Shown here one piece after another: positions 3,144 through 15,855 of a stretch of DNA of 42,825 bases. Position 1 is the stretch's first letter; each line of letters opens with the position of its first letter. Source of the DNA: Candidatus Chloroploca mongolica (lineage in GTDB: Bacteria; Chloroflexota; Chloroflexia; Chloroflexales; Chloroflexaceae); NCBI RefSeq assembly GCF_004762035.2, contig NZ_SIJK02000043.1:1-42825 (forward strand). The letters run 5' to 3'. The position numbers were made by a program, and so were the translations under genes. The notes below the pieces were generated by a model. It had not been told where the DNA came from, searched no databases, and saw nothing but the letters and a program-made list of their open reading frames with translations.

Positions 3144-3956
3144 ATGAAGAAGCCTCGCGTTGTTGTCGTGATGCCTGCCTATAATGCCGCTCGTACGCTC
3201 GAACGGACGTATCATGATATTCCGCCTGGTGTGGTTGACCACGTCATCCTGGTTGATGATGTTTCCCGCGATGAGACGGTTGAGATTGCACGGCAGCTCG
3301 GGATCGAGGTGGTGATCCATATCCAGAATCGGGGGTATGGGGGCAATCAAAAGACCTGCTACCTTGAGGCTCTGCGCGATGGAGCCGATATTGTGGTGAT
3401 GCTGCACCCCGATTATCAGTATGATTCGACGCGCATTGTTGAGCTGATTCGTCCGATTGTTGCCGGTGAATACGATATGATGCTTGGTTCGCGTTTGAAG
3501 CGCCAGCCGGGCCAACGCGGCGTTCCTGCGCTCGCCGGCGGGATGCCGGTCTGGAAGTATGTCTCGAACCGGTTTCTGACGATCTGCGAAAATGTTGTGC
3601 TTGGCCTCAACCTCTCCGAGTTTCATACCGGGTTTCGTGCCTACAATCGTCGTTTGCTCGAGACCGTACCGTTTCTGCTCAACTCGGATGATTTTGTCTT
3701 TGATACCGAGATGATTGTGCAGGCGGTGCAGTACGGCTTTCGCATTGGCGAGATTGCGGTGCCAACCCGCTATTTTGAAGAGGCGTCGTCGGTGAATTTT
3801 CAGCGCTCGGTGGTCTATGGGCTCGCAACGCTCAATGTGCTGCGCCGCATGATGCTCCATCGCTCTGGAATGCGCCGTTATCCCCAGTTTAGCGCCCGTC
3901 TGGCTGATGTGATCAGTCCACATCATAGCGAAGCTATTCTTGGTGAGCGTCAGTAG
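3144..3956 (+). CDS. GT2 glycosyltransferase, polyprenol-phosphate sugar synthase-like
   Basis: The 270-residue GT-A fold protein begins [16 protein letters not shown], the nucleotide-binding strand of family 2, followed by [12 protein letters not shown] (Asp38-Asp39) and HPDYQYD (90-94), which supply the nucleotide- and metal-binding acidic residues. Length and the lack of C-terminal membrane helices resemble dolichyl-phosphate-mannose synthase-like enzymes, which load a sugar from a nucleotide donor onto a polyprenyl phosphate. Start choice: the ATG at 3144 is preceded by GGAG at a spacing of ten; earlier in-frame codons at 3108, 3126 and 3135 are possible. Its stop codon (3954-3956) shares a base with the GTG start of the next gene, so the two are translationally coupled. 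This fits a lipid-linked sugar donor being made for the adjacent GT-C enzyme. Confidence 0.85.
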
Positions 3957-6859
3957 TGGTGGCTGGCCGCGCTCTTCGCCAGGGTTTCGTTCATTCGCTC
4001 GTTCCTCTGCTGTTGCTCGGGCTTACCGTCCTGCTCCTGGTGCTGGCTCTCCGCACGGCCCCGCCGCTCCAGGTTGATGTTGGCGATACGGGCGATCTTC
4101 GTTTTCTCACCGGTTTTTACACACCTGAAACCGGCTTTGGCGAAAGCTTTCGCTGGAGTGGCCCCGAGGCGCGGTTTGTGTTGCACGGTGCCCCTGCGGC
4201 TCCTACGGTATTCTTGCTCCAGTTGAGTGGCGAACGCCTCCTTGCCCAGGGCGAACCCGAGGTGGCACTTGTCCAGGGTGCCAGCGAGGTGGCGCGCTTT
4301 GCGGTGCAGGCTGGCTGGCGCAGCTATGAGGTGCTGCTGCCCTCGGGGGCAGTGGCGACACCCGGCGGGAGTGCGCTTCCGCTCGCGCTAGTGACAGCGG
4401 TGAGCACGCCTGGAGCCAGCGATGCGGCACGTGATTTTCGCCCCCTTGGGCTGCCAGTATCGCATGTTGGCGTCGCTGCCCTTGAAGGGCCACACACGCC
4501 CGCGCTTATCCGGTCGCTCTGGCTCACCTGGTTGCTGGCGCTGGTTGCTGGCAGCCTGGCCTTGCTTGATGCACTGCTCTTGCCGCGCCGACGAGCAAGC
4601 CTGTGGCTACGGGCGAGTCTGGTGATCGGGTTTGGTGGAACAATCCTGATCCTCTGGGCCGCACGCGATCCCTTCGGGCTTGCCTGGGTCTTGCCGCCCA
4701 CGCCGTGGATCCTGGGGACAGGCACGCTCTTGCTGGGGGTTGGGTTGGTTTTTGCGCTTGCGGGGGACGCGGAGCGAGATGATGCGCAAGCACCTGATGG
4801 TGGTGCGGGAAAACGCCCCTCCCCCCTCGTGGGAGCGGAGCGAGATGATGCGCAAGCACCTGAAGGCGGTGCGGGAAAACGCCCCTCTCCCCTCGTGGGA
4901 GCGGAGCGAGGTGATGCGCAAACGCCTAATGGCGGTGCGGGAAAACGCCCCTCCCCCCTCGTGGGAGCGGGGTTGGGGGTGGGGGGAGCGTCGGGGTTCG
5001 CACTGGTGGCGGGGATGGCGCTGCTTGCTGTGGCCGTTGGCTTGCTCAATACGCAAACGAGTGTGGCTGGTGGATTGATCCTGGCGCTCGTGGCCCTTAT
5101 GCTAGTGGCCGGTGGCCCGTATGGGCTCGGCAAAGATGGGTGGGTACGCGGCGGCCCCGATCTTTCCCAGAAACATGCGCTGCTGCTGCTCGGCTTGATC
5201 CTGGTGCTCGCCGTCGGCTTGCGGCTCTTTCGACTTGATGAGATGCCGTTTGGCCTGTGGCGCGACGAAGCGCGTCACGGTCTTTTTGCCCAGCGCATTC
5301 GTGATTACCCTGATTACCGACCGATCTATATCGCCAACGAGAACCTTGATGCATCGCAACTCGACCTAAATGCCGCACCGCTCTCGATCCACTTGCCTGC
5401 GCTCGGACTCTACCCCTTTGCGCTCGCCTTGCACCTCTGGGGCGAAAATCTCTGGTCGATGCGCGTGATGAGTGGCCTCGGCGGGGCGCTGACGGTCGTG
5501 CCGCTCTACGGCTTCGCGACATGGCTCAGCGGGCGGCGGAGCATCGGGCTTGTTGCGGCTTTCTTGCTGGCGGTCTCAAGTTGGCATATTACCGTCAGTC
5601 GGCTCGTCTTTCCTACGATCTTTGACCCACTGCTGACCCTCAGTGGCCTCTGGTTGCTCGGGTTGGGGCTGAGCGGAGGGGGGCGAACAGCGCACGTGTA
5701 CCCACCGATCCTGTCGCACACGACGGGCAGCCCGTTGGCGAGGGGAACTGATGCTCGCCCGGGGCACCACCGGTTCTTCTGGATGGCGTATTGTCTGCTC
5801 GGGGGCGCGAGCATTGGTCTGGCGATGCAGACGTATCACACGGGACGGCTGGCCCCTGTGGCGGCGGCGTGGCTGGCGCTGGTGCTCTTGTTGCGCGAGC
5901 CACGGGCGTGGCGCGGCTGGTTGCGTGGCAGTCTTGTGGCAAGCCTGGGGTTGTTGCTGACCGTGACACCGCTGCTGCTCTTTGCGCTCAACCAACCCGA
6001 AGCCTTCAACGACCGGGTGGGCCAGGTTTTTCTTTTGAGTGACGAGGCGCGGCAAGGCGCGGCGCCGCTAGAAATGCTTGATCAATCACTCCACCAGCAC
6101 CTGCTGATGTTTCACGTGCAGGGCGACCTGAATGGGCGGCACCACGCCCCTGGACGACCGATGTTTGACTATGTCACTGGCATTGGCCTGCTGCTCGGCA
6201 GCGTCGTCTTGCTCCGATCGGCGCGTGATTGGCGCACCCTGATCGTGGCAGGCTTGTTTCTGCTGGGCCTGGCCCCGAGTGCGCTGGCGGTCGATGCCCC
6301 CCACGGCATGCGAAGCCTCAACGCCGCTGCGTATGGCGTGATCATTGCGGCCCTGGGCTGGAACGCACTGGGGTGGAGCCTGCGCCAGCGCGGGGTGCAG
6401 CTTGCGCGGGGCATGCGCCGCAGCATCGTGGCAATGCTGGCGAGCCTGGTGATCGTGCTCAACGCAACGGTCTATTTTGTGGTGATGCCACCGCAGCGCG
6501 AAGTCTTTCTCGTCTTCTACCCAGTGCAGAGCCAGATGGGGGCGTACATTCGTGCCGTCGCAAACGAAAACGGCGGCGAACTACCAAGGCAGATCTACGT
6601 CGCTGAAGGCCTGAAAAATGATCAGATCTTCATGTTTCTGACCTCAGGCCTGCACATCGAAACCTTTCGCGGGGCAAGCCTATCGGCGCCGCCGGAACCA
6701 GGGGCACTCTTTCTCTTTGGGGGCTACTTTGCCGACGAAGAGGCCGCTCTACTCGCTCCGATCCTTGGCCTCGACGCCGCACCGACGGGCAGTGGACCAG
6801 CGTTTCCTGACGGGCAAGGGGTGACGTTTTATATGTATGAGGTGGGTGTATTGCCGTGA
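3956..6859 (+). CDS. GT-C (ArnT/PMT-like) membrane glycosyltransferase, paralogue 1
   Basis: The predicted protein has 967 residues. It starts with a signal-anchor helix, then a soluble extracytoplasmic beta-rich region (about 40-180), then many hydrophobic helices. The motif RDEARH at 436-441, in the first loop after a membrane helix, corresponds to the acidic catalytic motif of GT39/GT83-type enzymes that use polyprenyl-phosphate sugars. The GTG start overlaps the stop of the GT2 gene by one base. The gene is clearly paralogous to the one at 15856-18660, with shared blocks such as GLWRDEARHG, FGLWRDE and QREVFLVFYPVQSQMGAY. It differs by three in-frame copies of a 22-residue repeat (about residues 272-337) between two membrane segments, and by a short insert near 5690-5760. 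The acceptor (protein, lipid or wall polymer) cannot be told. Confidence 0.8.
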   Translation: MVAGRALRQGFVHSLVPLLLLGLTVLLLVLALRTAPPLQVDVGDTGDLRFLTGFYTPETGFGESFRWSGPEARFVLHGAPAAPTVFLLQLSGERLLAQGEPEVALVQGASEVARFAVQAGWRSYEVLLPSGAVATPGGSALPLALVTAVSTPGASDAARDFRPLGLPVSHVGVAALEGPHTPALIRSLWLTWLLALVAGSLALLDALLLPRRRASLWLRASLVIGFGGTILILWAARDPFGLAWVLPPTPWILGTGTLLLGVGLVFALAGDAERDDAQAPDGGAGKRPSPLVGAERDDAQAPEGGAGKRPSPLVGAERGDAQTPNGGAGKRPSPLVGAGLGVGGASGFALVAGMALLAVAVGLLNTQTSVAGGLILALVALMLVAGGPYGLGKDGWVRGGPDLSQKHALLLLGLILVLAVGLRLFRLDEMPFGLWRDEARHGLFAQRIRDYPDYRPIYIANENLDASQLDLNAAPLSIHLPALGLYPFALALHLWGENLWSMRVMSGLGGALTVVPLYGFATWLSGRRSIGLVAAFLLAVSSWHITVSRLVFPTIFDPLLTLSGLWLLGLGLSGGGRTAHVYPPILSHTTGSPLARGTDARPGHHRFFWMAYCLLGGASIGLAMQTYHTGRLAPVAAAWLALVLLLREPRAWRGWLRGSLVASLGLLLTVTPLLLFALNQPEAFNDRVGQVFLLSDEARQGAAPLEMLDQSLHQHLLMFHVQGDLNGRHHAPGRPMFDYVTGIGLLLGSVVLLRSARDWRTLIVAGLFLLGLAPSALAVDAPHGMRSLNAAAYGVIIAALGWNALGWSLRQRGVQLARGMRRSIVAMLASLVIVLNATVYFVVMPPQREVFLVFYPVQSQMGAYIRAVANENGGELPRQIYVAEGLKNDQIFMFLTSGLHIETFRGASLSAPPEPGALFLFGGYFADEEAALLAPILGLDAAPTGSGPAFPDGQGVTFYMYEVGVLP
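4769..4966 (+). repeat. Three in-frame 66-bp tandem repeats inside the GT-C gene
   Basis: Three copies start at 4769, 4835 and 4901, and each encodes a 22-residue unit of the form AERDDAQAP-x-GGAGKRPSPLVG. A partial continuation (GCGG then a G-rich stretch) follows at 4967. The nucleotide core CCCCTCCCCCCTCGTGGGAG is GC-rich and partly palindromic, like dispersed intergenic repeats. Because 66 is a multiple of three, the array stays open in frame. The paralogue at 15856 lacks it, so it is probably an insertion that was amplified within the gene. Confidence 0.9.
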
Positions 6860-6890
6860 TGAGTAGTCTGTGAAGTGTATGTGCTGATGA

Positions 6891-6912: not shown

Positions 6913-6971
6913 TGTGGGCCAGCAGCAGGATCTACCGGTTTTAGGCTTCTCTCCGACAGGATGCTAGGAGG

Positions 6972-7532
6972 CTATGAAGCTCCAGTTGGTGTAGATGCTG
7001 AAACCGCCCAGATCTCGTAACGGTCGTAGCCGTACTTAGCTTGAGCAATTTCAAGGATTCGCTTCAGGCGTTCGTCGCGGGTGACTAAACGCAAGTCATA
7101 TTGCACAGCAACACTTACGATCCAAAGATCGTTTTCCTGGATACCAAGTTCGCGAGCACTCGTCGTATCACGCAACTCTTCAGGGCGCTTGGCTTTTATT
7201 CGTCCGCGCATATCGCGTGGCGCGTATCGCCGAAAAAGTTCGCCACGCAGGACGCTGTAGTACTGACTTGTATCTTTATCTACGGGCCAGACAAAATAGG
7301 TCTCCATGGCATCACGTACAGCTTGGTGCCGACTTGGATCGGCACCATCAGTGATGTTAAGGCCATAGGCTACTTCGCCAATGGAGATAGCGCAAACCGC
7401 AATGGTGCTTTCTCCGAGAGCGCTTAATCTCCCTCGAATCAGCGCATGATCCTTGTTGCCGCCATCCCACGCGATACTGGCAACGGAGGTATCGAGTAAG
7501 TAGGCGTCAGGCGTCGATGTCATAATCATCAT
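6972..7532 (-). CDS. PIN-domain protein, putative ribonuclease
   Basis: From the ATG at 7532 the product is 186 residues. It shows the PIN signature: YLLDTSVASIAW with Asp14, AISIGEVAYGL with Glu53, ENDLWIVSVAV with Asp135 and LVTRDERL with Asp153. These four acidic residues form the Mg-dependent nuclease centre in VapC-type toxins. The start is uncertain: 7523 and a TTG at 7562 are in frame and none has a clear ribosome binding site. Whichever is used, the start lies within the 3' end of the methylase gene (stop at 7507), so translation is probably coupled. No VapB-like antitoxin gene is adjacent on either side, so this is not an ordinary toxin-antitoxin pair. The overlap instead suggests that it works with the methylase. 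Confidence 0.8.
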   Translation of the reverse strand: MMIMTSTPDAYLLDTSVASIAWDGGNKDHALIRGRLSALGESTIAVCAISIGEVAYGLNITDGADPSRHQAVRDAMETYFVWPVDKDTSQYYSVLRGELFRRYAPRDMRGRIKAKRPEELRDTTSARELGIQENDLWIVSVAVQYDLRLVTRDERLKRILEIAQAKYGYDRYEIWAVSASTPTGAS

Positions 7533-10086
7533 CCGATGAGTCGTCGAGCTCGCGTACAGCAACTGAGATAACCGGATCGTTCAGCACTGGTAGACGGCTG
7601 ATTGTAGAGCGGGCACCGGCATTTTGAAAACCTTGGGAAATGAAGATGCGCCACGGAATAGCTGGACGAAAATCGGTTGGATAGTAGCCTGTGAAATGCA
7701 CTGGACCGGGGCGTTGATAACCGGCAAACGTGTCTAGCAGCTGTTTCTCTAATCGTGGAGGCAGTTCGTAAGCCGAGAGAACCTCAGCATCAATTTGTGC
7801 CAGTAGTTGCCGACATGTTTCTTCAAGTTCTTCAGCTTGGTCAGGATTTTGTAGCCACTGAGAGCGATATAACCTATATTGATTTACAAGAATGACAAGC
7901 GTTTGAGTTTGTGCCGTCGTGAAATCTGGAAAGGGTATGTCTTCAATAGCACGTATTTGATTGTCCCGCCCTCCTGCCGCCGGATTGGTATAAAGAAAAG
8001 CATTAGCTAGAGGGCTGTTGAGTACGGATGCGATTTCCTCCAGAGAGGTGTTTGCCTTGGCCCAAATTCCGTGAAACCTTTGATAACAAACTAGACCCTG
8101 ATGATCTATAACTGCTGCAATTCGCCAGGGGCCGCGACTCAGGCGAGCCGCATTGACGATTACTTTTGGCCGATCCCACGGTAATTTGTAGGCCTCATAC
8201 AGCATAACCGAAGCATCGGTATTTAAAAATGCGAATTTGCCCGTAAAGAACGGCTCAAAGTTGTCTTTTGCACTGACAAGACCAGCAGCAAATCCCGATC
8301 TCGGCTCACTGCTCACTAGTTCTGCTTTATGAGAGCTCATTGGAACGCGGTATTCGATACCGCGATGCACCTCCGCAACATCACCAAGCCGAGGTAGTCG
8401 ACTAAGAGCTTCCCATACGCGCCAAAGCGGTGTACGCCAGAAGACCGGATAGTCAGCGGCATTTATCGACTCAGATGGCAACTCTTCCTGCCAAGTAGGA
8501 ATGCCGGTCTGCAGGAAGCGATCATAATCCTGTTTGTTGACCGAAGCGGTACGGCGACGTGGACTACGCGTGCGTGGACTATGTGCAGTTAGTAGAACCG
8601 TCTCAACATCAGAATATTGAAAAACGGTATCAGGGAGTGTGACGACCGCTATCTCCTGATATGATGCTGCCAATTGTTTTCGCGCGTTGCGGTATTCCTG
8701 ACCGCTCACAAAAGCCTTTGGCAAGACAAAACCAAGCTGTGCAGGCGGGTAGCGCATGACACGATTCAGTGCCTCAACCGCCCGTTTGGCCGCACCTGCT
8801 CGCAGGCGCGTTTGTGTTCCACGTGTTGGTACATCGCTGAAGGGCGGATTGCAGAGTACAATCCTGGCCTGTTGGAGGTACGTGTCGGTGTGTGGCGACG
8901 AAAAGACATCAGCCTGCCGGATATCCCAGCCATCAGGATTAGGGTAGTCAGCAAGGATCAGCGAATAGCGGGCCACTTCACGAGCAAACGCATCGAGTTC
9001 CATCCCACGTAACATGCGCACGAAATAGTCATGCCGCTGGTTCGTATCCATTGTGGAGGGAAGGAGGGTGCGAAGCCGTCCAAGCGCAGCAATGAGAAAT
9101 GGCGCGTGTCCAGTGAAGGGCTCAAAGACACGCCGCTCATCTTGTGGCAATTCGTCAAAAGGCAGTTGTTGGACAATGTACTCGGCAAGTTGTGGCGGTG
9201 TGGCATGGGTGTCAAAGAGTTCGCGGTTACGCTCGCTGACGAGGGTGTTCTCGTACACGTATGCCAATGCTTCAACAGAGAGATTCTGAAAGAGGAACGC
9301 GGTGCGGATTGTATCCCAGGCGACACGTTGCACAAGTGGATCCTGCAACAACCCCTCATCGGGAGCCTGCCGAAAGTAAAATGCGTCGACGGCAGCAATT
9401 ACCCGTTGGGGATCAGGGTGCAACCAGTCGTCACCGGGATAGCCACGATCCGCAAGCATTTTCGATGCGATAAAGCGGAAAATCAGTCGGAAGAGCGCCT
9501 GGTAATCAGGCTCGCTGTCGTGGTGTTCAGCATAAACCGCTTTGCAGGTAGCGAGCACATCGCGGAGCAGTTGGTCAAGTTTTTTGTGAGTTGTTCCCTC
9601 CAACGTGGGAAGCAATCCGGTATCAAAAAAGTCAAGTTGAACAGGTCCCCGAGCGAAACCGATGGACTTAGCTCGCAGAACTGCGTCAGGATTCCATTCG
9701 TTGCGATTCGCGTGAAAAGCAGTGCTGAGATGTTCCGGTGCAATCTCTTCGATAAACGTCGGCGCACCACTGGCGGTCATGCGCCACCGCCGCACAATGC
9801 CCTGTTCAGGGGAGAGCACCAGGATCTGGGGCGCACCCAGTGCGCGATACTGTTGGAGTGTGTCTGGGCCGTACTGATCAAGAATAGCCACCCCAAAGCA
9901 TGCGCTCCGGTATGATGGTGGCTCTTGAGCGAAGGCAGCTAAATCGATCGTACGTGTCGGAGAAGAGTCGATGAGCACGTCAGCAAAAGAGTAGCGATGT
10001 CGGAGCAAGTCGTCACGATAGCCTAACTCCTGTAGGCCATTGTGCGTCAAGTCCAGCAATTGTGTCGCTGAAAAACGTGCTTCCAC
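7507..10086 (-). CDS. N6-adenine DNA methylase-like protein (class I SAM MTase)
   Basis: The 859-residue protein has an N-terminal region (1-150) that may be a degenerate nuclease- or DNA-binding-type domain. An HsdM-like helical segment follows (about 160-310, with VYENTLVSERNRELFDTHATPP). Then come the methylase core with motif I FEPFTGHAPF (321-330) and motif IV NPPF (413-416), and a C-terminal half (about 560-859) like target-recognition domains of type I or IIG systems. Motif I is degenerate: the usual GxG is GHA, so SAM binding should be tested. The GTG start at 10086 follows AGAAGGGGG. A separate ATG frame just upstream is not used. The gene has its own consensus promoter at 10238-10266 and overlaps a PIN gene downstream. 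A self-contained restriction-modification or other defence role is inferred; no HsdR or HsdS gene is present. Confidence 0.75.
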   Translation of the reverse strand: MEARFSATQLLDLTHNGLQELGYRDDLLRHRYSFADVLIDSSPTRTIDLAAFAQEPPSYRSACFGVAILDQYGPDTLQQYRALGAPQILVLSPEQGIVRRWRMTASGAPTFIEEIAPEHLSTAFHANRNEWNPDAVLRAKSIGFARGPVQLDFFDTGLLPTLEGTTHKKLDQLLRDVLATCKAVYAEHHDSEPDYQALFRLIFRFIASKMLADRGYPGDDWLHPDPQRVIAAVDAFYFRQAPDEGLLQDPLVQRVAWDTIRTAFLFQNLSVEALAYVYENTLVSERNRELFDTHATPPQLAEYIVQQLPFDELPQDERRVFEPFTGHAPFLIAALGRLRTLLPSTMDTNQRHDYFVRMLRGMELDAFAREVARYSLILADYPNPDGWDIRQADVFSSPHTDTYLQQARIVLCNPPFSDVPTRGTQTRLRAGAAKRAVEALNRVMRYPPAQLGFVLPKAFVSGQEYRNARKQLAASYQEIAVVTLPDTVFQYSDVETVLLTAHSPRTRSPRRRTASVNKQDYDRFLQTGIPTWQEELPSESINAADYPVFWRTPLWRVWEALSRLPRLGDVAEVHRGIEYRVPMSSHKAELVSSEPRSGFAAGLVSAKDNFEPFFTGKFAFLNTDASVMLYEAYKLPWDRPKVIVNAARLSRGPWRIAAVIDHQGLVCYQRFHGIWAKANTSLEEIASVLNSPLANAFLYTNPAAGGRDNQIRAIEDIPFPDFTTAQTQTLVILVNQYRLYRSQWLQNPDQAEELEETCRQLLAQIDAEVLSAYELPPRLEKQLLDTFAGYQRPGPVHFTGYYPTDFRPAIPWRIFISQGFQNAGARSTISRLPVLNDPVISVAVRELDDSSDDDYDIDA

Positions 10087-10237
10087 GGCGCCCCCTTCTC
10101 TTCATGCTGCATCGCCAAGAGTGCAGAGCGCTGGTTTTGCCTACCGCTCCTTCGCGAGAAAGATGGTCATCTTTAAATAATGTAAGCAGGCTCGGCGAAT
10201 GATTTTCTGCCGTTCTGACGCCCAAAACGACTTATGT

Positions 10238-10266
10238 AGTATAGAACGCTTGGTTCATGGTGTCAA
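10238..10266 (-). promoter_or_regulatory. Consensus sigma-70 promoter of the methylase-PIN unit
   Basis: On the minus strand TTGACA (10266-10261) is followed after exactly 17 bases by TATACT (10243-10238). The -35 box lies inside the last codons of the beta-helix gene, whose stop is at 10255-10257. The transcript would carry a leader of about 145 bases before the GTG at 10086. No other feature was recognised in 10087-10237. Confidence 0.8.
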
Positions 10267-11922
10267 TCTGATCAGAGGCATAAGCACGGCAAACGCACGT
10301 GCCCCATATTCCACGGCACCCAGGTCGCAGACACCCACACGTGAGGCATCACGTTGATCGGTGGCCTGGCAAGACGTTGGATCGCCGGCGTCAATCAGCG
10401 GGCTGCCAGGTTGTGGCAGTATGGTCTGCATCGGGAAGCGTCCGCCGTTATAGGTCAGATTGCCGAGCAACAGATCACCGGTGAAGGCATCCCGATCGGT
10501 GGCACCGCTTAATGACGCGCAACTGCCCTGGCTCAGGTTGTGACCGAGCGATTGAAACAGCCCGCCATCGCAGTTGACCGGATAGCCAAAGATGACCGTG
10601 TTCACAAGCTGCACTACGCCCGGATTGGCCGGGGTCTGCGGGGAATCTTCGTAGATCGCATTGCCGGCGATGGCGGCCTGGTTATTCGCCAGGGTAGCAT
10701 TGGTCAACACGGCATAGCGCCCGTAGTGATAGAACCCTCCGCCCAGCCCGGAGGCCACATTGCCGGCAATCGTGACATTCGTCAAGGTCAGGTTGTCGTC
10801 GGAAGCTTGATAGATGCCACCACCGTTGTTGCCGGCAAAGTTGCCCTGGATGGTGGCATTAGTGACAAAGGCTGTGCCGCCCGCGTGGTACAGGCCGCCG
10901 CCATTCGGCGTGCCGCTGACCGCGTTGGCGTAATTGCTCACCAGATTGACCTCGCGCATCTCCAGCACGGTGCCATACGAATTGACACCACCGCCCTCAT
11001 AGGCAAAATTATTGGAAAAGGTCGTCTTTTCGATGACGGCTGTACCATTAAGATTCCAGAGCCCGCCGCCACTGCCGGTTGTTTCGTTGCCATCAAACAG
11101 GCTGCTTGTCACGGTCAGCGCACCACTGTTTTCGATGCCGCCGCCGTAACCCGCCGTATTCTTGGCGAAGGTGACGGTTGCCAGATCGGCGCTGGCACCG
11201 CTGGCGTTGTAGAGGCCGCCACCATCCAGGGCGTAGTTGGTTGTGAAAGAGGTATTGCGCGCGATGATCGCACCGGTAATGGCGTTTTCGATCGCGCCGC
11301 CGCGCCCGGTTGCACCATTCGCCCGATTGTTGGCAAAGCTGGTATTGGCAATGTCCAGCCTACAGCCGTCGTTGTAGATCGCCCCGCCCGTTACGGCCTG
11401 GTTGCCTGCAATGACGCTGTCGCGGATGGTGAGTGAACCGTCGTAACAGTAGATTGCCCCGCCCGAGACAGCCGAGCGATTATTCCGTAGCTGCACGTTT
11501 TCTACTATCACCTGCGCCCCTGAGGCTTCGATTGCGCCGCCGCTGACGAGCGAGTCGCCGCCTTGCAGAATGATCTGTTGCAGGCGGAACGTGATTGGCC
11601 CGACAAAGAAGATCCGCTCGTTCGGCCCGCCGTTGAGGATGATCCGCCCGCCGCCGTTGATCGTCACATTGGCCAGATTCACCACTTTAGCCAGGCTAAG
11701 CTGGATGGTATGCACGGACGGGCCGCAGTTGAAGGTCATCACCCCACCGCCACTGCTGACCGTGGTGAGCGCCACGTCAAAGGCGGCCTCGGTGCAACTG
11801 GCTGGAGACCCATCACCCACTACCGCATCAGCGGCGCGGGCCGTCTGGTGAGTGCTAGCCAGAAGCACCACCACTGCGAACAACCATAGCGCAATACCAC
11901 TTATTTTCTTCATCATCGGCAT
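10255..11922 (-). CDS. Exported right-handed beta-helix protein, choice-of-anchor Q type
   Basis: The 555-residue protein opens with a signal peptide (MPMMKKISGIALWLFAVVVL, cleavage probably after ARA near residue 30). The body is built of about twelve turns of the pattern GGGIYN...LTVTNSSF..N, typical of parallel beta-helix surface proteins. It closes with SPLIDAGDP and DLGAVEYG, the choice-of-anchor Q hallmark, then a hydrophobic tail VLMPLIRLTP. The ATG at 11922 is chosen because AGGAG lies eight bases upstream; an in-frame codon at 11946 would overlap the lipoprotein gene. It starts two bases after the lipoprotein stop, so the two form an operon. Likely an adhesin or a surface scaffold; no catalytic motif was seen. 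Confidence 0.85.
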   Translation of the reverse strand: MPMMKKISGIALWLFAVVVLLASTHQTARAADAVVGDGSPASCTEAAFDVALTTVSSGGGVMTFNCGPSVHTIQLSLAKVVNLANVTINGGGRIILNGGPNERIFFVGPITFRLQQIILQGGDSLVSGGAIEASGAQVIVENVQLRNNRSAVSGGAIYCYDGSLTIRDSVIAGNQAVTGGAIYNDGCRLDIANTSFANNRANGATGRGGAIENAITGAIIARNTSFTTNYALDGGGLYNASGASADLATVTFAKNTAGYGGGIENSGALTVTSSLFDGNETTGSGGGLWNLNGTAVIEKTTFSNNFAYEGGGVNSYGTVLEMREVNLVSNYANAVSGTPNGGGLYHAGGTAFVTNATIQGNFAGNNGGGIYQASDDNLTLTNVTIAGNVASGLGGGFYHYGRYAVLTNATLANNQAAIAGNAIYEDSPQTPANPGVVQLVNTVIFGYPVNCDGGLFQSLGHNLSQGSCASLSGATDRDAFTGDLLLGNLTYNGGRFPMQTILPQPGSPLIDAGDPTSCQATDQRDASRVGVCDLGAVEYGARAFAVLMPLIRLTP

Positions 11923-11924
11923 GC

Positions 11925-12590
11925 TTATTGCTCCTGGCAAATCCACTGCATCGTCAGATCCACTCGTGCGTTGGGGTCTGGCGCACTGACTTGCACCGAG
12001 GCAATTTCGACCAGGCCTGTTGCCTCAAGCATACCCGACCCATCGGCAGCGACCGTCACGCGGGCAGTCGAGCCTTCGCCAATGCCAAAGCTACGCGCGC
12101 CAACGTTCATTGCCGGGAACATGTCGGGAATGGCTCCACCTGTGGCAACCGACTGCAAGACATATTCGCCCGGCCCCGTATATGCGGCGATGCGCGTTAG
12201 GGCAACGGTAATCGGTGGTTCGCCTGAGTTCAACATCATCGGCACTTCGAGAATTCGTGCTGGCCCCTCTTCCGCCCACGCAGTACAATTATCTATATTG
12301 CCCCCCACTCCGCCTGTTGCCGAGGCGTTGACTGCCCCGCTGACAGTAGATGTGACGCAGAAGCGGAAATACTCCTCGCAGGCGACAGCTTGTGCGCTGC
12401 CTGGGTCAGGGCTTTCTGCGTTGCTCGTTGCCGCATCAGGGGGTTGTTCGCTCGATGTGCCCACCGCCGAGGGCACCATCGTCGGCGGATTGACCGTTGG
12501 CGCTGCTGGCGTGGTTGTGCCACACCCTACGCTCACCAGCAACAGCAGACCTAGCAAAGCCATGCGGAAGGATTTGGACGTCTTCATCAT
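11925..12590 (-). CDS. Putative lipoprotein of unknown function
   Basis: The 221-residue product has a type II signal peptide with the lipobox SVGC (Cys23). A Pro/Thr/Ser-rich spacer follows (about 25-65), then a globular domain rich in beta strands and containing a few cysteines (EEYFRFCVTS, DNCTAW, WICQEQ). I do not recognise the domain. It is the first gene of a tight pair with the beta-helix protein, so the two are probably displayed on the cell surface together. AAAGGA precedes the ATG at 12590; a second ATG follows directly. No convincing promoter was seen in the 125-base divergent gap to the XRE regulator. Confidence 0.65.
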   Translation of the reverse strand: MMKTSKSFRMALLGLLLLVSVGCGTTTPAAPTVNPPTMVPSAVGTSSEQPPDAATSNAESPDPGSAQAVACEEYFRFCVTSTVSGAVNASATGGVGGNIDNCTAWAEEGPARILEVPMMLNSGEPPITVALTRIAAYTGPGEYVLQSVATGGAIPDMFPAMNVGARSFGIGEGSTARVTVAADGSGMLEATGLVEIASVQVSAPDPNARVDLTMQWICQEQ

Positions 12591-12715
12591 TTGGTCTGTC
12601 CTTTGTCGAGAACCGTTACGCTTGTCGTTTCAGGCAGTTCGATGGTCAGAATCAGGCATCGGATCTGCTTGGATGTAAAGGGTACTGGTTTTGCCGTGAG
12701 TAAAGGTGACATTTT

Positions 12716-14659
12716 GTGACAAAGTTGCCAACTCTACCCGCTTCGTTTGGCCCGGCCTTACGTTTTTTACGCAAGCGTGCCCACCTGACCCAGGACGAAC
12801 TGGGGCGGCGCGTTGGCTACAGCCGGGAACAGATCGCCCGCCTGGAAAATGGCTCGCGCTTCCCCGACCTGACGGTGGTGGCGGCGCTCTTTGTGCCGGC
12901 GCTTTTGATGGAAGATGAAACGCCCCTGGTTGAACAATTGCTCAAGCTTGCGGGCAACACGCGTGCCACGCAGGTGACGCCTACCCGCACGCGGCACATG
13001 CGCGGGCAGCAGATCAGCAACCCCATAGTTACCCCCAGGCTGCGCGTCCACACCCCACCAACCCCGCTGCTCCCGTTGATTGGGCGTGAAGCCGAGGTCA
13101 GCGCTCTGCTTGACCTGCTTGCAAGCGAGCGTCTTGTCACCGTGCTTGGCGCGCCGGGCATCGGCAAGACGCGTCTGGCGCTGGAAGTAGCCCGAGCGGC
13201 GCGGCCCATCTTTGCGCATGGCGTGGCGTTTGTCTCACTGGTCGATGTCGTCAACCCTGCCGATGTACCGTATGCGGTCTTGCGCACTCTATCGCTCACC
13301 CCGGTAGCGCACCAGTCGGTTGACGATGCCATCGCCGATTATCTCGCCACTCGTCATCTGCTGCTCGTGCTGGATAACTGCGAACACATTCTCGATGGTG
13401 CCTCGTTCTTCACGGCCTGGCTCGAGTGCGCACCGCATCTCAAACTGCTCTGTACCAGTCGCGTACCGCTTGATGTGTACGGCGAACAGGAATGGCCGCT
13501 CGGTCCACTGGGTACCCCCGATCTCGCGCAACCACCTGATCTCGAAGTCTGGCGCAGCCGACCTGCCCTGCAATTGCTCTGTGCCCGTATTCGTGCCGCC
13601 GACCCCGCGTTCACCCTGACGCAAGCGAACCTGTTACCACTGGCAACGCTGTGCATCGCGTTGGATGGCTTGCCACTTGCGCTCGAATTGGCCGCTGTGC
13701 GCCTGCGCGATCTCGCCCCCGATGTGCTGGTGCAGCAACTATTGACACTGCGCAGCAACGGGCAACCTGCTTCGACCTGGTTGCAGCAAACCCGGCGCAA
13801 CGTCGCCGAACGCCACCGTACCCTGCAAGCCGCCATCGCCTGGAGTGTGAAGCGACTGACGCCCGCCGAGCAGATTGCCTTTGCACGCCTGGGGATCTTT
13901 ATTGGCGGTTGCAGCCTGGATGCCGCCCTGCAGGTTGCTGCTGCCGAACCAGAAATACTGGTATGCCTGGAGCGTACGAGCTTGATCAAGCTTCAGGACG
14001 AGCGCATCACGCTCCTGGAGACCTTACGCACCTACGCCTTCGAGCAACTCACGGCCAGTGGCAACCTGGCTGACTGCCAGGCTACCCATGCCGCGTATTA
14101 CACCGCTTTTGCTCAGGATGTGTTCAACGGCCTTCAGGGCGAACAGCAGGCCTTCTGGATGGAACGCGCCCTGGCTGACCACGAAAATTGCCTGGTGGCG
14201 CTACGCTGGGCCCTGGCGAATAAACGTGGTGAAACTGCGATCACCATCGCCGACAGCCTGTGGTGGTTTTGGTATCGGCGCGGCTTGTTTACCCTGGCCC
14301 TAGAGTTGCTCACCGCTGCCCTGGGCCTTGCCACCTCGGATCAATCGACCCGGGCCTCCGCCCTCAACGGCCTCGCCTCGATCTACCTGGCGTTAGACGA
14401 CTATACGGCAAGCCTGGACTGTCACCGCGAGGGGTTGAGCCTGCGTCGGCAGCTTGGCGATCACCGTGGTACGGCTACTGTGCTGCACAACATGGCCCTG
14501 ACGGCCTATATGATGGGCGATTATACGCATGCCCTGGCCTGGCTTGATGAAAGCATCGCCGCTGACCCAACCGCCGACCCGATGCAAGCCTGGGCGCACA
14601 AGGGCATCATTGCCCTCCACATGCTCGACCTCGAACAGAGGCCCGTTCTTGGTTCGTGA
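12716..14659 (+). CDS. XRE/NB-ARC/TPR regulator, probably 3'-truncated
   Basis: The 647-residue protein combines an XRE helix-turn-helix (residues 12-60, LTQDELGRRVGYSREQIARLENG), a linker, and a STAND-type ATPase with Walker A GAPGIGKT (145-152) and Walker B LLLVLDNCEH (215-224). A winged-helix segment follows, then the beginning of a TPR array (about 520-640). Proteins of this build regulate transcription or act as signal-sensing switches, usually with many more TPR repeats. Here the chain ends abruptly after about two repeats with EQRPVLGS, and eight bases later an inverted-repeat element begins at 14667. I infer loss of the 3' part; no TPR coding sequence is found beyond the element. GTG start at 12716, preceded by AAAGGTGA. 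The truncated form may still bind DNA and ATP. Confidence 0.75.
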   Translation: MTKLPTLPASFGPALRFLRKRAHLTQDELGRRVGYSREQIARLENGSRFPDLTVVAALFVPALLMEDETPLVEQLLKLAGNTRATQVTPTRTRHMRGQQISNPIVTPRLRVHTPPTPLLPLIGREAEVSALLDLLASERLVTVLGAPGIGKTRLALEVARAARPIFAHGVAFVSLVDVVNPADVPYAVLRTLSLTPVAHQSVDDAIADYLATRHLLLVLDNCEHILDGASFFTAWLECAPHLKLLCTSRVPLDVYGEQEWPLGPLGTPDLAQPPDLEVWRSRPALQLLCARIRAADPAFTLTQANLLPLATLCIALDGLPLALELAAVRLRDLAPDVLVQQLLTLRSNGQPASTWLQQTRRNVAERHRTLQAAIAWSVKRLTPAEQIAFARLGIFIGGCSLDAALQVAAAEPEILVCLERTSLIKLQDERITLLETLRTYAFEQLTASGNLADCQATHAAYYTAFAQDVFNGLQGEQQAFWMERALADHENCLVALRWALANKRGETAITIADSLWWFWYRRGLFTLALELLTAALGLATSDQSTRASALNGLASIYLALDDYTASLDCHREGLSLRRQLGDHRGTATVLHNMALTAYMMGDYTHALAWLDESIAADPTADPMQAWAHKGIIALHMLDLEQRPVLGS

Positions 14660-14666
14660 TCTAGCC

Positions 14667-15111
14667 CCAATAGCTTGCAAAGAAGGACGCGCAGCGACCT
14701 CACTGGTCTTGATGAAGGCATTCCAATGCCGACGCGCCGACCTGTGAGGTCTCGCCTTGTCTTGCCTTGCCGATCAAGGATTGCAAGGACGAGACCTAGG
14801 GCGATGGCATCATACGAAACCGGACACAAAAAGACGCGCGATCAGGGCACCCGCAAGGGGTGCCCCTACCGGCCGGGGCCCGGATCCGGTGTACGGGCAC
14901 CCGCAAGGGGTGCCCTGGTACCGGCCGGGGGCCGGATCCGGTGTACGGGCACCCCTTGCGGGTGCCCTGATACCGGCCGGGGGCCGGATCCGGTGTACGG
15001 GCACCCCTTGCGGGTGCCCTGGCGGGGTGCATACACGGAAGATGCCATCGCCCTTGGACGAGACCTCACCGGTCTTCTCGCCCTGATGAGGTCTTCTTGG
15101 CAAAGTATTGG
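14667..15111. mobile_element. 445-bp inverted-repeat element (MITE/REP-cluster-like)
   Basis: The ends 14667-14685 and 15093-15111 are inverted repeats matching at 16 of 19 positions (CCAATA...AAGAAG). A second, inner inverted repeat of 14 bp is perfect (14798-14811 with 15041-15054). A 13-mer GACCTCACNGGTC occurs at 14696, inverted at 14739 (one mismatch), and again at 15062. The centre is an array of GC-rich hairpins (14845-15019). No coding region is convincing, so the element would be non-autonomous. No target-site duplication was found. It begins eight bases after the end of the XRE/NB-ARC gene and accounts for most of the 606-base gap between genes; the remaining bases 15112-15197 show nothing else. 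Confidence 0.65.
14845..15019. repeat. Array of four 21-bp palindromic units, two in each orientation
   Basis: Units at 14845-14865 and 14895-14915 have the form GGGCACC-CGCAA-GGGGTGCCC. Units at 14947-14967 and 14999-15019 are the exact reverse complement. Spacing is 50, 52 and 52 bases. The nearly identical spacers (ACCGGCCGG, then CCGGATCCGGTGTAC) are themselves partly palindromic. Such units look like REP/BIME hairpins. Confidence 0.9.
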
Positions 15112-15197
15112 ATGTAACACTACATGCCCGATCCGCAACTGGTGCGGCTGAACATCTTGCCCAGACTCAGACCAGGCGCCAGACCGTTAAACGCCCC

Positions 15198-15265: not shown

Positions 15266-15841
15266 ATGTCACAAACCAGTGAGCACCTCTTGCGACAGAT
15301 GTTCAAACGGCTAAATCCTTTGATGCTATGGCATTGGCGCGTAGGCATGGGAGCGTACCTTAATTTTTGGCCGTCAGGAATCGGGCGTTTTCTTATCTTG
15401 ATCCATACGGGTCGCAAAAGCGGGCGCCTCTATCGCACGCCAGTCAATTACGCCGAACGCGATGGTGACGTGTATGTTACGTCAGGATTTGGCCGCAGCG
15501 CCGATTGGTATCACAATCTTATGGCCCAGCCGCGCACTGAGGTGTGGCTCCCCGACGGACGCTGGCTCGTTGAGGTGGAGGATGTCACCGAGAGCGCGGG
15601 CAAGACGGTGATCATGCGTGATGTGCTCCAGGGAAGTGGCTTTGCCGCCTATCTGGCCGGGATAAACCCCGACCGGTTGAGCGATGCGGACCTGGATGCT
15701 GCCACTGCCTCTTACCGGCTGCTGCGTTTGCGTCGCGTTGCTCCTCTCGCTGGATCTGGTGGGCCAGGCGACTTGATTTGGCTCTGGCCGCTGCTGTTGC
15801 TCATAGCTTTCCTGCTGGGACGTGGTTGGCCCCGTCGCTAA
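15266..15841 (+). CDS. Deazaflavin (F420)-dependent nitroreductase family protein with membrane tail
   Basis: The 191-residue protein matches the DUF385/Ddn-like family: a hydrophobic start, then LIHTGRKSGRLYRTPVNY, the phosphate-binding strand-turn of the split-barrel fold, and YVTSGFGRSADWYHNLMAQP. Family members use F420H2 (some FMN or other cofactors) to reduce quinones or nitro compounds. The usual domain ends near residue 150. Here it is followed by a hydrophobic helix (about 170-187) ending in RGWPRR, which would anchor the protein in the membrane, perhaps beside the quinone pool. The start is supported by AAGGAG eight bases upstream. The next gene starts 14 bases downstream, so it may be co-transcribed with GT-C paralogue 2. 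No F420 biosynthesis gene lies in the window. Confidence 0.8.
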   Translation: MSQTSEHLLRQMFKRLNPLMLWHWRVGMGAYLNFWPSGIGRFLILIHTGRKSGRLYRTPVNYAERDGDVYVTSGFGRSADWYHNLMAQPRTEVWLPDGRWLVEVEDVTESAGKTVIMRDVLQGSGFAAYLAGINPDRLSDADLDAATASYRLLRLRRVAPLAGSGGPGDLIWLWPLLLLIAFLLGRGWPRR

Positions 15842-15855
15842 ACGAGAGAACAACT

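What the first reader, a model, noticed from the sequence alone, without database searches (positions are those of the whole stretch)
7507..10086. Methylase-PIN operon as a candidate undescribed defence module
A large HsdM/IIG-like methylase with a degenerate motif I (GHA in place of GxG) overlaps a PIN nuclease gene with all four acidic residues. There is no HsdR, HsdS or antitoxin nearby, and the unit has its own perfect promoter. A PIN ribonuclease controlled by a methylase-type DNA sensor could act in phage defence.
Basis: inference. Interest (0 to 1): 0.7.

Follow-up and report, generated by a model that had tools for sequence, protein, structure and literature searches.

The report
DNA methylase paired with RNase toxin
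A bacterial gene pair joins a DNA-marking enzyme to a probable RNA-cutting toxin; some relatives carry a different toxin in the same position, so it looks like a compact restriction-modification-like unit whose DNA-cutting enzyme has been replaced by a toxin, though none of this has been tested in the laboratory.

Summary
An 859-aa N6-adenine-type DNA methylase (7507-10086, -) overlaps by 17 bp a VapC-family PIN gene with all four acidic residues (6972-7523, -). They form a 3.3-kb cassette with its own promoter: homology to a Viridilinea copy runs 6963-10268. One same-genus genome lacks the cassette at this site; another has methylase fragments and no PIN. Both genes are under purifying selection (dN/dS 0.22 each).

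Nine further intact relatives were found, six in Chloroflexota and three on rhizobial plasmids. The gene directly after the methylase is PIN in 8 of 10, RES in 1, and a possibly HEPN-like protein in 1. Six more distant methylases are followed by a metallo-beta-lactamase-type protein. One bona fide R-M locus has its endonuclease in the same position. Seven of 10 have a small upstream gene, DNA-binding by Pfam in two. The methylase N-terminus has no conserved acidic residue, so no built-in nuclease is expected.

Best reading: an R-M-like module whose endonuclease is replaced by a translation-targeting toxin restrained by the methylase. Toxicity, methylation and defence are untested. VapC beside R-M genes is published; a methylase-toxin unit without endonuclease and with exchangeable effectors I did not find described.

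The parts
6963..10268 (-). whole cassette (promoter + methylase + PIN); borders of homology with the Viridilinea copy
   Evidence: blastn window vs L010: 6963-8170 and 8353-10268 only; right border adjoins the point 10269 where G014, which lacks the cassette, resumes
10238..10266 (-). sigma-70-like promoter TTGACA-17-TATACT
   Evidence: 11 of 12; L010 reads TTGACA-17-TATAAT; a consensus match, not measured
7507..10086 (-). N6-adenine-type DNA methyltransferase, single chain with a probable target-recognition region, 859 aa
   Evidence: family profile matches type I M subunits and RM.BsaXI in the PDB; dN/dS 0.215 against L010
9667..10086 (-). N-terminal domain, residues 1-140; no conserved acidic residue, so no nuclease site expected
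   Evidence: column test over 10 members; fold not determined (AF2 model mean pLDDT 35)
9097..9123 (-). motif I, EPFTGHAPF (SAM-binding loop, clade-typical GHA)
8839..8850 (-). motif IV, NPPF
8167..8406 (-). variable part of the probable target-recognition region, residues 561-640; 40-50% identical to L010, where all other 40-residue blocks but the first are 82-97%
   Evidence: no blastn match for 8171-8352
6972..7523 (-). VapC-family PIN gene, probable ribonuclease (alternative starts 7529, 7532), overlapping the methylase by 17 bp
   Evidence: Pfam PIN E 2.1e-12; family profile finds VapC toxins in the PDB, best E 6.3e-11; catalytic D/E/D/D in 8 of 8; dN/dS 0.217 against L010

Best explanation
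A mobile, R-M-like two-gene module in which the restriction endonuclease has been replaced by a VapC-family PIN ribonuclease. Shown: conserved pair with overlapping or nearly touching genes; a different effector in the same position in some relatives; purifying selection on both genes; presence as a cassette in two contexts and absence from the site in a sister genome; a fast-changing recognition region. Inferred: the methylase (or a complex that it forms) keeps the PIN toxin inactive while it can bind or modify its target sites; when phage DNA, an anti-restriction protein or loss of the methylase breaks that state, the PIN cuts tRNA or other RNA, translation stops and phage growth aborts. The nearest characterised logic is PrrC, latent in the EcoprrI complex.
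For: Effector directly after the methylase: PIN 8, RES 1, possibly HEPN-like 1 of 10 intact members; the tree needs at least 2 effector changes. Homologous MerR-like upstream proteins accompany PIN (L012, L013), RES (L014) and a protein that looks like an endonuclease by eye (L058), so that upstream protein is hardly a toxin-specific antitoxin, which leaves the methylase as the likeliest restraint; window and L010 share no upstream small gene. The same position holds the BsuBI/PstI endonuclease in a plasmid R-M locus. Methylase and PIN co-diverge. The cassette has sharp borders; in Khr17 the methylase is in fragments and no PIN is found. Shedu and PDC-S28 genes adjoin L013, Hma and PDC-S02 genes adjoin L033. 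dN/dS 0.22 for both genes.
Against: No assay of toxicity, neutralisation, methylation or defence. Defence neighbours were seen at 2 of 10 loci, and only selected neighbours were scanned with PADLOC (8 of the 10 proteins are neighbours, the other two effectors). Upstream AbrB-like, RHH-like and Xre proteins in four members could be antitoxins. The HEPN-like call rests on motifs by eye; its library hits are weak and mixed (PADLOC JetA E 0.026 and HEPN_IX E 0.037; Pfam WH2_Lhr E 0.029; PDB Cam1 E 1.3), so only the RES swap is firm. Co-divergence also follows from plain co-inheritance, and shuffled effector labels need as few changes on the tree (500 of 500). Sampling: 7 Chloroflexota members from overlapping draws and 3 plasmids; chromosomes of other phyla were not searched with a profile.
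Confidence: 0.57

Rival explanations
1. Addiction module without a defence role: the methylase is simply a very large antitoxin and the pair stabilises the plasmid or island that carries it, as some R-M systems do.
For: Three relatives are on plasmids, and the Viridilinea copy is on a 7,994-bp contig with plasmid-like genes by eye; the unit behaves as a cassette; fragmentation of the methylase goes with absence of the PIN in Khr17.
Against: A fast-changing recognition region and a different effector in the same position fit DNA-discriminating defence better than a plain antitoxin; two loci lie among defence genes. The two roles do not exclude each other.
Confidence: 0.2
2. Split toxin-antitoxin: the PIN is neutralised by the small upstream DNA-binding-like protein (AbrB-like, RHH-like, Xre, MerR-like) and the methylase is a bystander or corepressor.
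For: Seven of 10 members have a small upstream gene overlapping the methylase start; Xre by Pfam in L025 (E 1e-13), MerR below its cut-off in L012 (E 4e-4); AbrB- and RHH-like by eye only.
Against: Window and L010 share none, and in L033 the upstream gene is a DUF1016 fragment. Homologous MerR-like proteins serve PIN, RES and endonuclease-like effectors alike.
Confidence: 0.1
3. The PIN protein cuts DNA and is the restriction endonuclease of an unusual R-M system.
For: Its position equals that of the endonuclease in an R-M locus; PIN and FEN1-type DNA nucleases share a fold (recalled).
Against: Closest solved relatives are VapC toxins, several named tRNA(fMet)-specific; RES and HEPN domains are not known as DNA nucleases (recalled).
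Confidence: 0.08
4. Unrelated neighbours: an orphan methylase beside a VapC gene by chance.
For: VapC genes are common (13 PIN loci in this genome).
Against: Eight of 10 intact members have the PIN within -20 to +11 bp, in two phyla; Mantel r 0.95.
Confidence: 0.03

Closest known systems
VapC and HicA toxins beside R-M systems in Thiohalocapsa (PMC9296519; passages read)
   Same: VapC-type RNase gene directly beside a DNA methylase, antitoxin not encoded there; the authors propose a PrrC-like role in phage defence or programmed death. Six of 23 methylases there are flanked by vapC or hicA, five of these in complete R-M systems.
   Different: Mostly beside complete R-M loci with their endonuclease; here no endonuclease was found, the toxin gene overlaps or nearly touches the methylase gene, and the slot also takes RES, possibly HEPN-like, and in a sister clade metallo-beta-lactamase proteins.
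PrrC-EcoprrI (PMC3506569 and PMC12707154; passages read)
   Same: RNase toxin kept latent by a modification system, with no dedicated antitoxin gene.
   Different: PrrC belongs to a full hsdMSR locus and is an anticodon nuclease of another family; here there is no HsdR or HsdS and a PIN domain instead.
HEPN toxins in R-M and methylase operons (PMC3710099; passages read)
   Same: RNase toxins encoded with methylases; its table lists a HEPN family in operon with a ParB nuclease and DNA methylase, and HEPN-M occasionally fused to nucleic acid methylase domains.
   Different: The paper's text describes R-M-linked HEPN domains fusing to nucleases and helicases, not to methylases; no PIN or RES effector exchange with this methylase was seen in the passages.
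Type II R-M systems with BsuBI/PstI endonuclease, e.g. Xanthomonas plasmid locus L060
   Same: Small ribbon-helix-helix gene, methylase, then effector, each overlapping the next.
   Different: Effector is a DNA endonuclease by Pfam and the methylase is only weakly related (25% over 28% of the query).
VapBC toxin-antitoxin systems
   Same: Toxin is a VapC-family PIN domain.
   Different: Partner is an 859-aa methylase, not a small VapB.
Type IIG restriction-modification enzymes (MmeI, BsaXI, BseRI type)
   Same: Single-chain N6 methylase with a probable target-recognition region.
   Different: No conserved acidic residue in the N-terminal domain; a separate toxin gene instead.

Membership tests
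Type II toxin-antitoxin, VapBC | PIN-domain toxin with four acidic active-site residues | tested here: met
   Pfam PIN E 2.1e-12; D11, E50, D132, D150 in 8 of 8; PDB VapC matches
Type II toxin-antitoxin, VapBC | small protein antitoxin encoded directly upstream | tested here: not met
   the overlapping upstream gene is the methylase; no leader ORF of 31 aa or more is shared by window and L010
Type II toxin-antitoxin, VapBC | partner neutralises the toxin | not testable with these tools
   needs expression assays
Type IIG restriction-modification enzyme | single-chain N6 methylase with own target-recognition region | tested here: inconclusive
   methylase domain met; a diversified stretch at residues 561-640 suggests a recognition region, but the role is inferred
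Type IIG restriction-modification enzyme | nuclease active site in the same chain | tested here: not met
   no conserved D or E in residues 1-140 over 10 members; sequence test only, the fold could not be modelled
Type I restriction-modification | HsdR and HsdS subunits | tested here: not met
   none among the 18 other window ORFs scanned; six further ORFs of 150 aa or more unscanned
Toxin-guarded R-M (PrrC-like) | RNase-type toxin encoded within the locus of a modification enzyme | tested here: met
   RNase activity itself inferred from the family
Toxin-guarded R-M (PrrC-like) | a restriction endonuclease is present and guarded | tested here: not met
   none next to the pair in the window, nor directly adjoining in the gene lists of L010, L012, L013, L024, L031, L032, L033, read by annotation or by eye, not all scanned; L024 has a separate methylase-Mrr gene about 0.5 kb further on and L013 a helicase and Shedu gene
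Toxin-guarded R-M (PrrC-like) | toxin released by anti-restriction factor or unmodified DNA | not testable with these tools
   needs phage and reconstitution experiments

The most novel reading that the evidence does not exclude
A class of immune module built on one constant part, a methylase that both reads DNA and restrains its partner, with a cell-damaging effector plugged into the position of the restriction endonuclease: PIN, RES, possibly HEPN, and in a sister clade a metallo-beta-lactamase. The methylase would be at once self-marker, sensor and antitoxin. In the Chloroflexota clade, with its changed motif I, it may even have given up methylation and act purely as a DNA-reading switch.
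Probability: 0.4. Interest if true: 0.8.

Novelty: new variant of a known kind. Interest (0 to 1): 0.6.

Why it matters
It offers a minimal, two-gene test of the 2012 proposal (PMC3506569, passages) that immunity proteins themselves restrain the toxins encoded beside them: in the window copy no endonuclease and no separate antitoxin were found that would confuse the result. The exchange of effectors suggests that R-M-like loci are a chassis onto which DNA-cutting, RNA-cutting or other toxic effectors can be mounted.

Tried and rejected
Structure prediction gave nothing usable: methylase from a single sequence, mean pLDDT 35; PIN from two sequences, 39; no fold search was run. Viral contigs: two profile scans, no relatives. 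Phages: tblastn with the window methylase, no match; with the RES-type methylase one weak hit to a type IIG enzyme. Classes of G160 (7 genomes) and G159 (2) gave nothing. The genome draws overlap and used different E-value limits (1e-10, 1e-20, 1e-40), so their counts are not additive. The window methylase alone has no meaningful PDB match; its NCBIfam best is MAD2 at E 0.094, far below cut-off. RES was not found in the window's own genome.

Considered and rejected: that the motif I change means gene decay (7 of 7 Chloroflexota members share it, and the methylase core has dN/dS 0.10); that an inverted repeat in the leader is an operator (one arm is not conserved in L010). Against a universal pattern: Polaromonas locus L059, a weak methylase hit, is followed by a 943-aa protein and a helicase, not a toxin. 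Weak plasmid hits H31, H33 and H35 were not examined. Of 17 plasmid PIN records, six were examined (H5, H6, H9, H12, H18, H20). Of 12 PIN places, two are the methylase-linked ones and seven others were read; three (L040, L042, L044) were not. The sister-clade count (6 of 6 metallo-beta-lactamase) covers the six distant methylases whose flanks were read; three come from one genus, and only L048, L052 and L057 were scanned with Pfam, the other three judged by their similar sequence and motif.

On re-checking, the spacing between the flanks in G014 was mended from 103 to 101 bp, the unscanned window ORFs are told more fully, the HEPN-like call was weakened, and the odds of the best reading were lowered slightly for that reason.

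Literature: six effective searches, open-licence PubMed Central only; the tool states that no bioRxiv preprints are held. Ten papers were opened, as found passages and none in full: PMC13092281, PMC2701414, PMC3710099, PMC3506569, PMC12839542, PMC3874152, PMC9296519, PMC10865869, PMC11980606, PMC12707154. The HicA and RelE surveys (PMC10865869, PMC11980606) do not contain the words methyltransferase or methylase. REBASE and DefenseFinder were not available.
Full report
What is there. The window is contig C98 of a 6.3-Mb genome (G000); the named relatives found are Ca. Chloroploca sp. Khr17 and Ca. Viridilinea mediisalina, Chloroflexota. On the minus strand, ORF 7507-10086 encodes an 859-aa methylase of the N6-adenine type (Pfam N6_Mtase E 1.8e-9; PADLOC MTase_I E 3.1e-15). 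ORF 6972-7523 encodes a PIN protein (Pfam E 2.1e-12) whose start codon lies 17 bp inside the methylase gene. A profile of the family PINs finds VapC toxins in the PDB (best E 6.3e-11; several named tRNA(fMet)-specific endonuclease). Scanned neighbours include sugar transferases, a P-type ATPase, a repeat protein and an HTH-ATPase-TPR regulator; no defence gene was recognised among them, but six ORFs of 150 aa or more and all shorter ones were not scanned.

A cassette with sharp borders. Compared with the Viridilinea contig L010, similarity covers window 6963-8170 and 8353-10268 and nothing else: from 9 bp past the PIN stop to just beyond the -35 hexamer of the promoter. The promoter is TTGACA-17-TATACT here and TTGACA-17-TATAAT there. 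The same-genus genome G014 has the flanks (ending at 6861 and resuming at 10269) with 101 bp between them instead of 3,407. The right junction adjoins the L010 border exactly; on the left, about 100 bp in each genome do not align, so the junction there is not clean. Khr17 (L011) has the same locus with three methylase fragments and no PIN. G014 has neither gene at the limits used.

Both genes are maintained. Between window and L010 dN/dS is 0.215 for the methylase (0.097 in the catalytic core) and 0.217 for the PIN. Blocks of 40 methylase residues are 82-97% identical except residues 1-40 (65%), 561-600 (50%) and 601-640 (40%). The last two lie in the probable target-recognition region, so DNA specificity has probably changed between otherwise similar copies (inference).

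The family. Searches of Chloroflexota (158 genomes of the window's class; 400 drawn from the phylum; 393, 29, 7, 2 and 177 from further classes; overlapping draws, different E limits) and tblastn of plasmids gave ten intact members: window, L010, L024, L025, L031, L032, L033, and plasmids of Sinorhizobium (L012), Agrobacterium (L013) and Rhizobium (L014), 33-85% identical to the window protein. It is rare: 7 of 400 genomes in the phylum draw match at E 1e-20, of which four are intact members, two distant sisters and one the broken Khr17 copy.

The effector slot. Directly after the methylase stop, at -20 to +11 bp, lies a PIN gene in 8 of 10, a RES-domain gene (Pfam E 1.5e-16) in Rhizobium Q54, and in L025 a 127-aa protein that I read as HEPN-like from its motifs; its library hits are weak and mixed (JetA E 0.026, HEPN_IX E 0.037; WH2_Lhr E 0.029). 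On the tree the RES member lies inside a 100/100-supported rhizobial clade with two PIN members, and the L025 member groups with the Chloroflexota PIN members; at least two effector changes are needed, though with only two non-PIN rows shuffled labels do as well (500 of 500), so the tree shows exchange, not a pattern. Where a PIN is present it diverges in step with its methylase (Mantel r 0.95, p 0.00015, 8 loci; Spearman 0.83), as co-inheritance predicts. Six more distant methylases (L048, L052-L055, L057) overlap a downstream protein of metallo-beta-lactamase type (Pfam in the three scanned, L057 below its cut-off at E 8e-4; TH-x-[HD]-x-DH motif in all six); four of the six come from two genera. 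An R-M locus has the same layout: Xanthomonas L060 is ribbon-helix-helix, methylase, BsuBI/PstI endonuclease. Rhizobium L058 is MerR-like protein, methylase, and a protein that looks like a PD-(D/E)XK nuclease by eye only (no Pfam match and no meaningful PDB match). Polaromonas L059 does not fit.

The upstream slot. Seven of 10 members have a small gene whose end overlaps the methylase start: Xre in L025 (Pfam E 1e-13), MerR-like in L012 (E 4e-4, below cut-off) with homologues in L013 and L014, and by eye AbrB-like in L024 and RHH-like in L031 and L032. Window and L010 share no leader ORF of 31 aa or more. Because homologous MerR-like proteins occur with PIN, RES and endonuclease-like effectors, they are more likely regulators, comparable to R-M controller proteins, than toxin-specific antitoxins. 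That leaves the methylase as the only partner common to all ten, and the only one seen in the window.

Is the methylase active, and does it cut DNA? Residues 1-140 contain no acidic residue conserved over the ten members, so a PD-(D/E)XK site is not expected and the protein fails that test for a IIG enzyme. NPPF is present in all ten. Motif I is GHA or GHS in the 7 Chloroflexota members and GAG in the 3 rhizobial ones. From memory, the TaqI methylase also has a non-canonical motif I and is active, so activity cannot be judged from this; it needs sequencing of modified bases.

Mechanism. Shown: coupling of the genes, cassette borders, selection, at least one firm effector exchange, change in the recognition region. 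Inferred: the methylase restrains the toxin and links it to DNA status. PrrC is the characterised precedent: latent in the EcoprrI complex, activated by the T4 anti-restriction peptide (passages of PMC3506569, PMC12707154). The 2012 paper argues that immunity systems lack typical antitoxins because their own components may restrain the toxins, which is the arrangement here reduced to two genes.

What is already in print. PMC9296519 (passages) reports vapC and hicA genes flanking 6 of 23 methylases in one genome, five in complete R-M systems, without antitoxins there, and proposes a PrrC-like role. PMC3710099 (passages) states that R-M-linked HEPN domains fuse to nucleases and helicases but not to methylases, although its table lists HEPN-M occasionally fused to nucleic acid methylases and a HEPN family in operon with a ParB nuclease and DNA methylase. 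PMC12839542 (passages) lists PIN and HEPN RNases as backup effectors of BREX-type loci. PMC13092281 (passages) validates two PIN-based defence systems unlike this one. I found no description of a methylase-toxin unit that lacks an endonuclease and exchanges PIN, RES and further effectors (searches). Hence: new variant of a known kind.

Limits. Recognised defence genes adjoin two of ten loci: Agrobacterium L013 (PDC-S28 helicase E 2e-304; Shedu, Pfam E 7.8e-21) and L033 (HmaB, HmaC, PDC-S02); L014 has a gene annotated as BseRI beside it. Only selected neighbours were scanned, so this is not a rate. Chromosomes of other phyla could not be searched with a profile here. Nothing biochemical is shown.

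Noticed in passing
L052, L053, L054, L055, L048, L057: A sister group of methylases (854-934 aa) is in 6 of 6 loci read followed, with overlap, by a ComEC-like metallo-beta-lactamase-type protein; possibly a second effector class of the same kind of module.
   Followed up: partly
L058:4637-8879: Rhizobium plasmid locus with a MerR-like protein homologous to those of the PIN and RES modules, a different methylase, and a 237-aa protein with a D...EAK pattern by eye: possibly a complete R-M system with the same regulator.
   Followed up: partly
window 3956-6859 and 15778-18660: Two long membrane glycosyltransferase-like genes appear to be paralogues: blastn against G014 gives cross-matches of 66-77%.
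   Followed up: no
window 4764-4970: Three tandem 66-bp repeats (92% match) inside the coding sequence of the 967-aa membrane protein.
   Followed up: no
window 10701-15191: This stretch (most of the repeat-protein gene, a lipoprotein-like gene by eye and an HTH-ATPase-TPR regulator) is also missing in G014, so a second insertion or deletion lies close beside the cassette.
   Followed up: no
L033:30-9985: Methylase-PIN module beside HmaB/HmaC genes, a small nucleotidyltransferase/HEPN-like pair by eye, and a DUF1016 fragment: a defence island.
   Followed up: partly
L031:6772-7444: An apparently ordinary VapBC-like pair with an AbrB-like antitoxin (by eye) lies about 1.1 kb upstream of the small gene of the methylase-PIN module, so the two arrangements coexist in one genome.
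   Followed up: no
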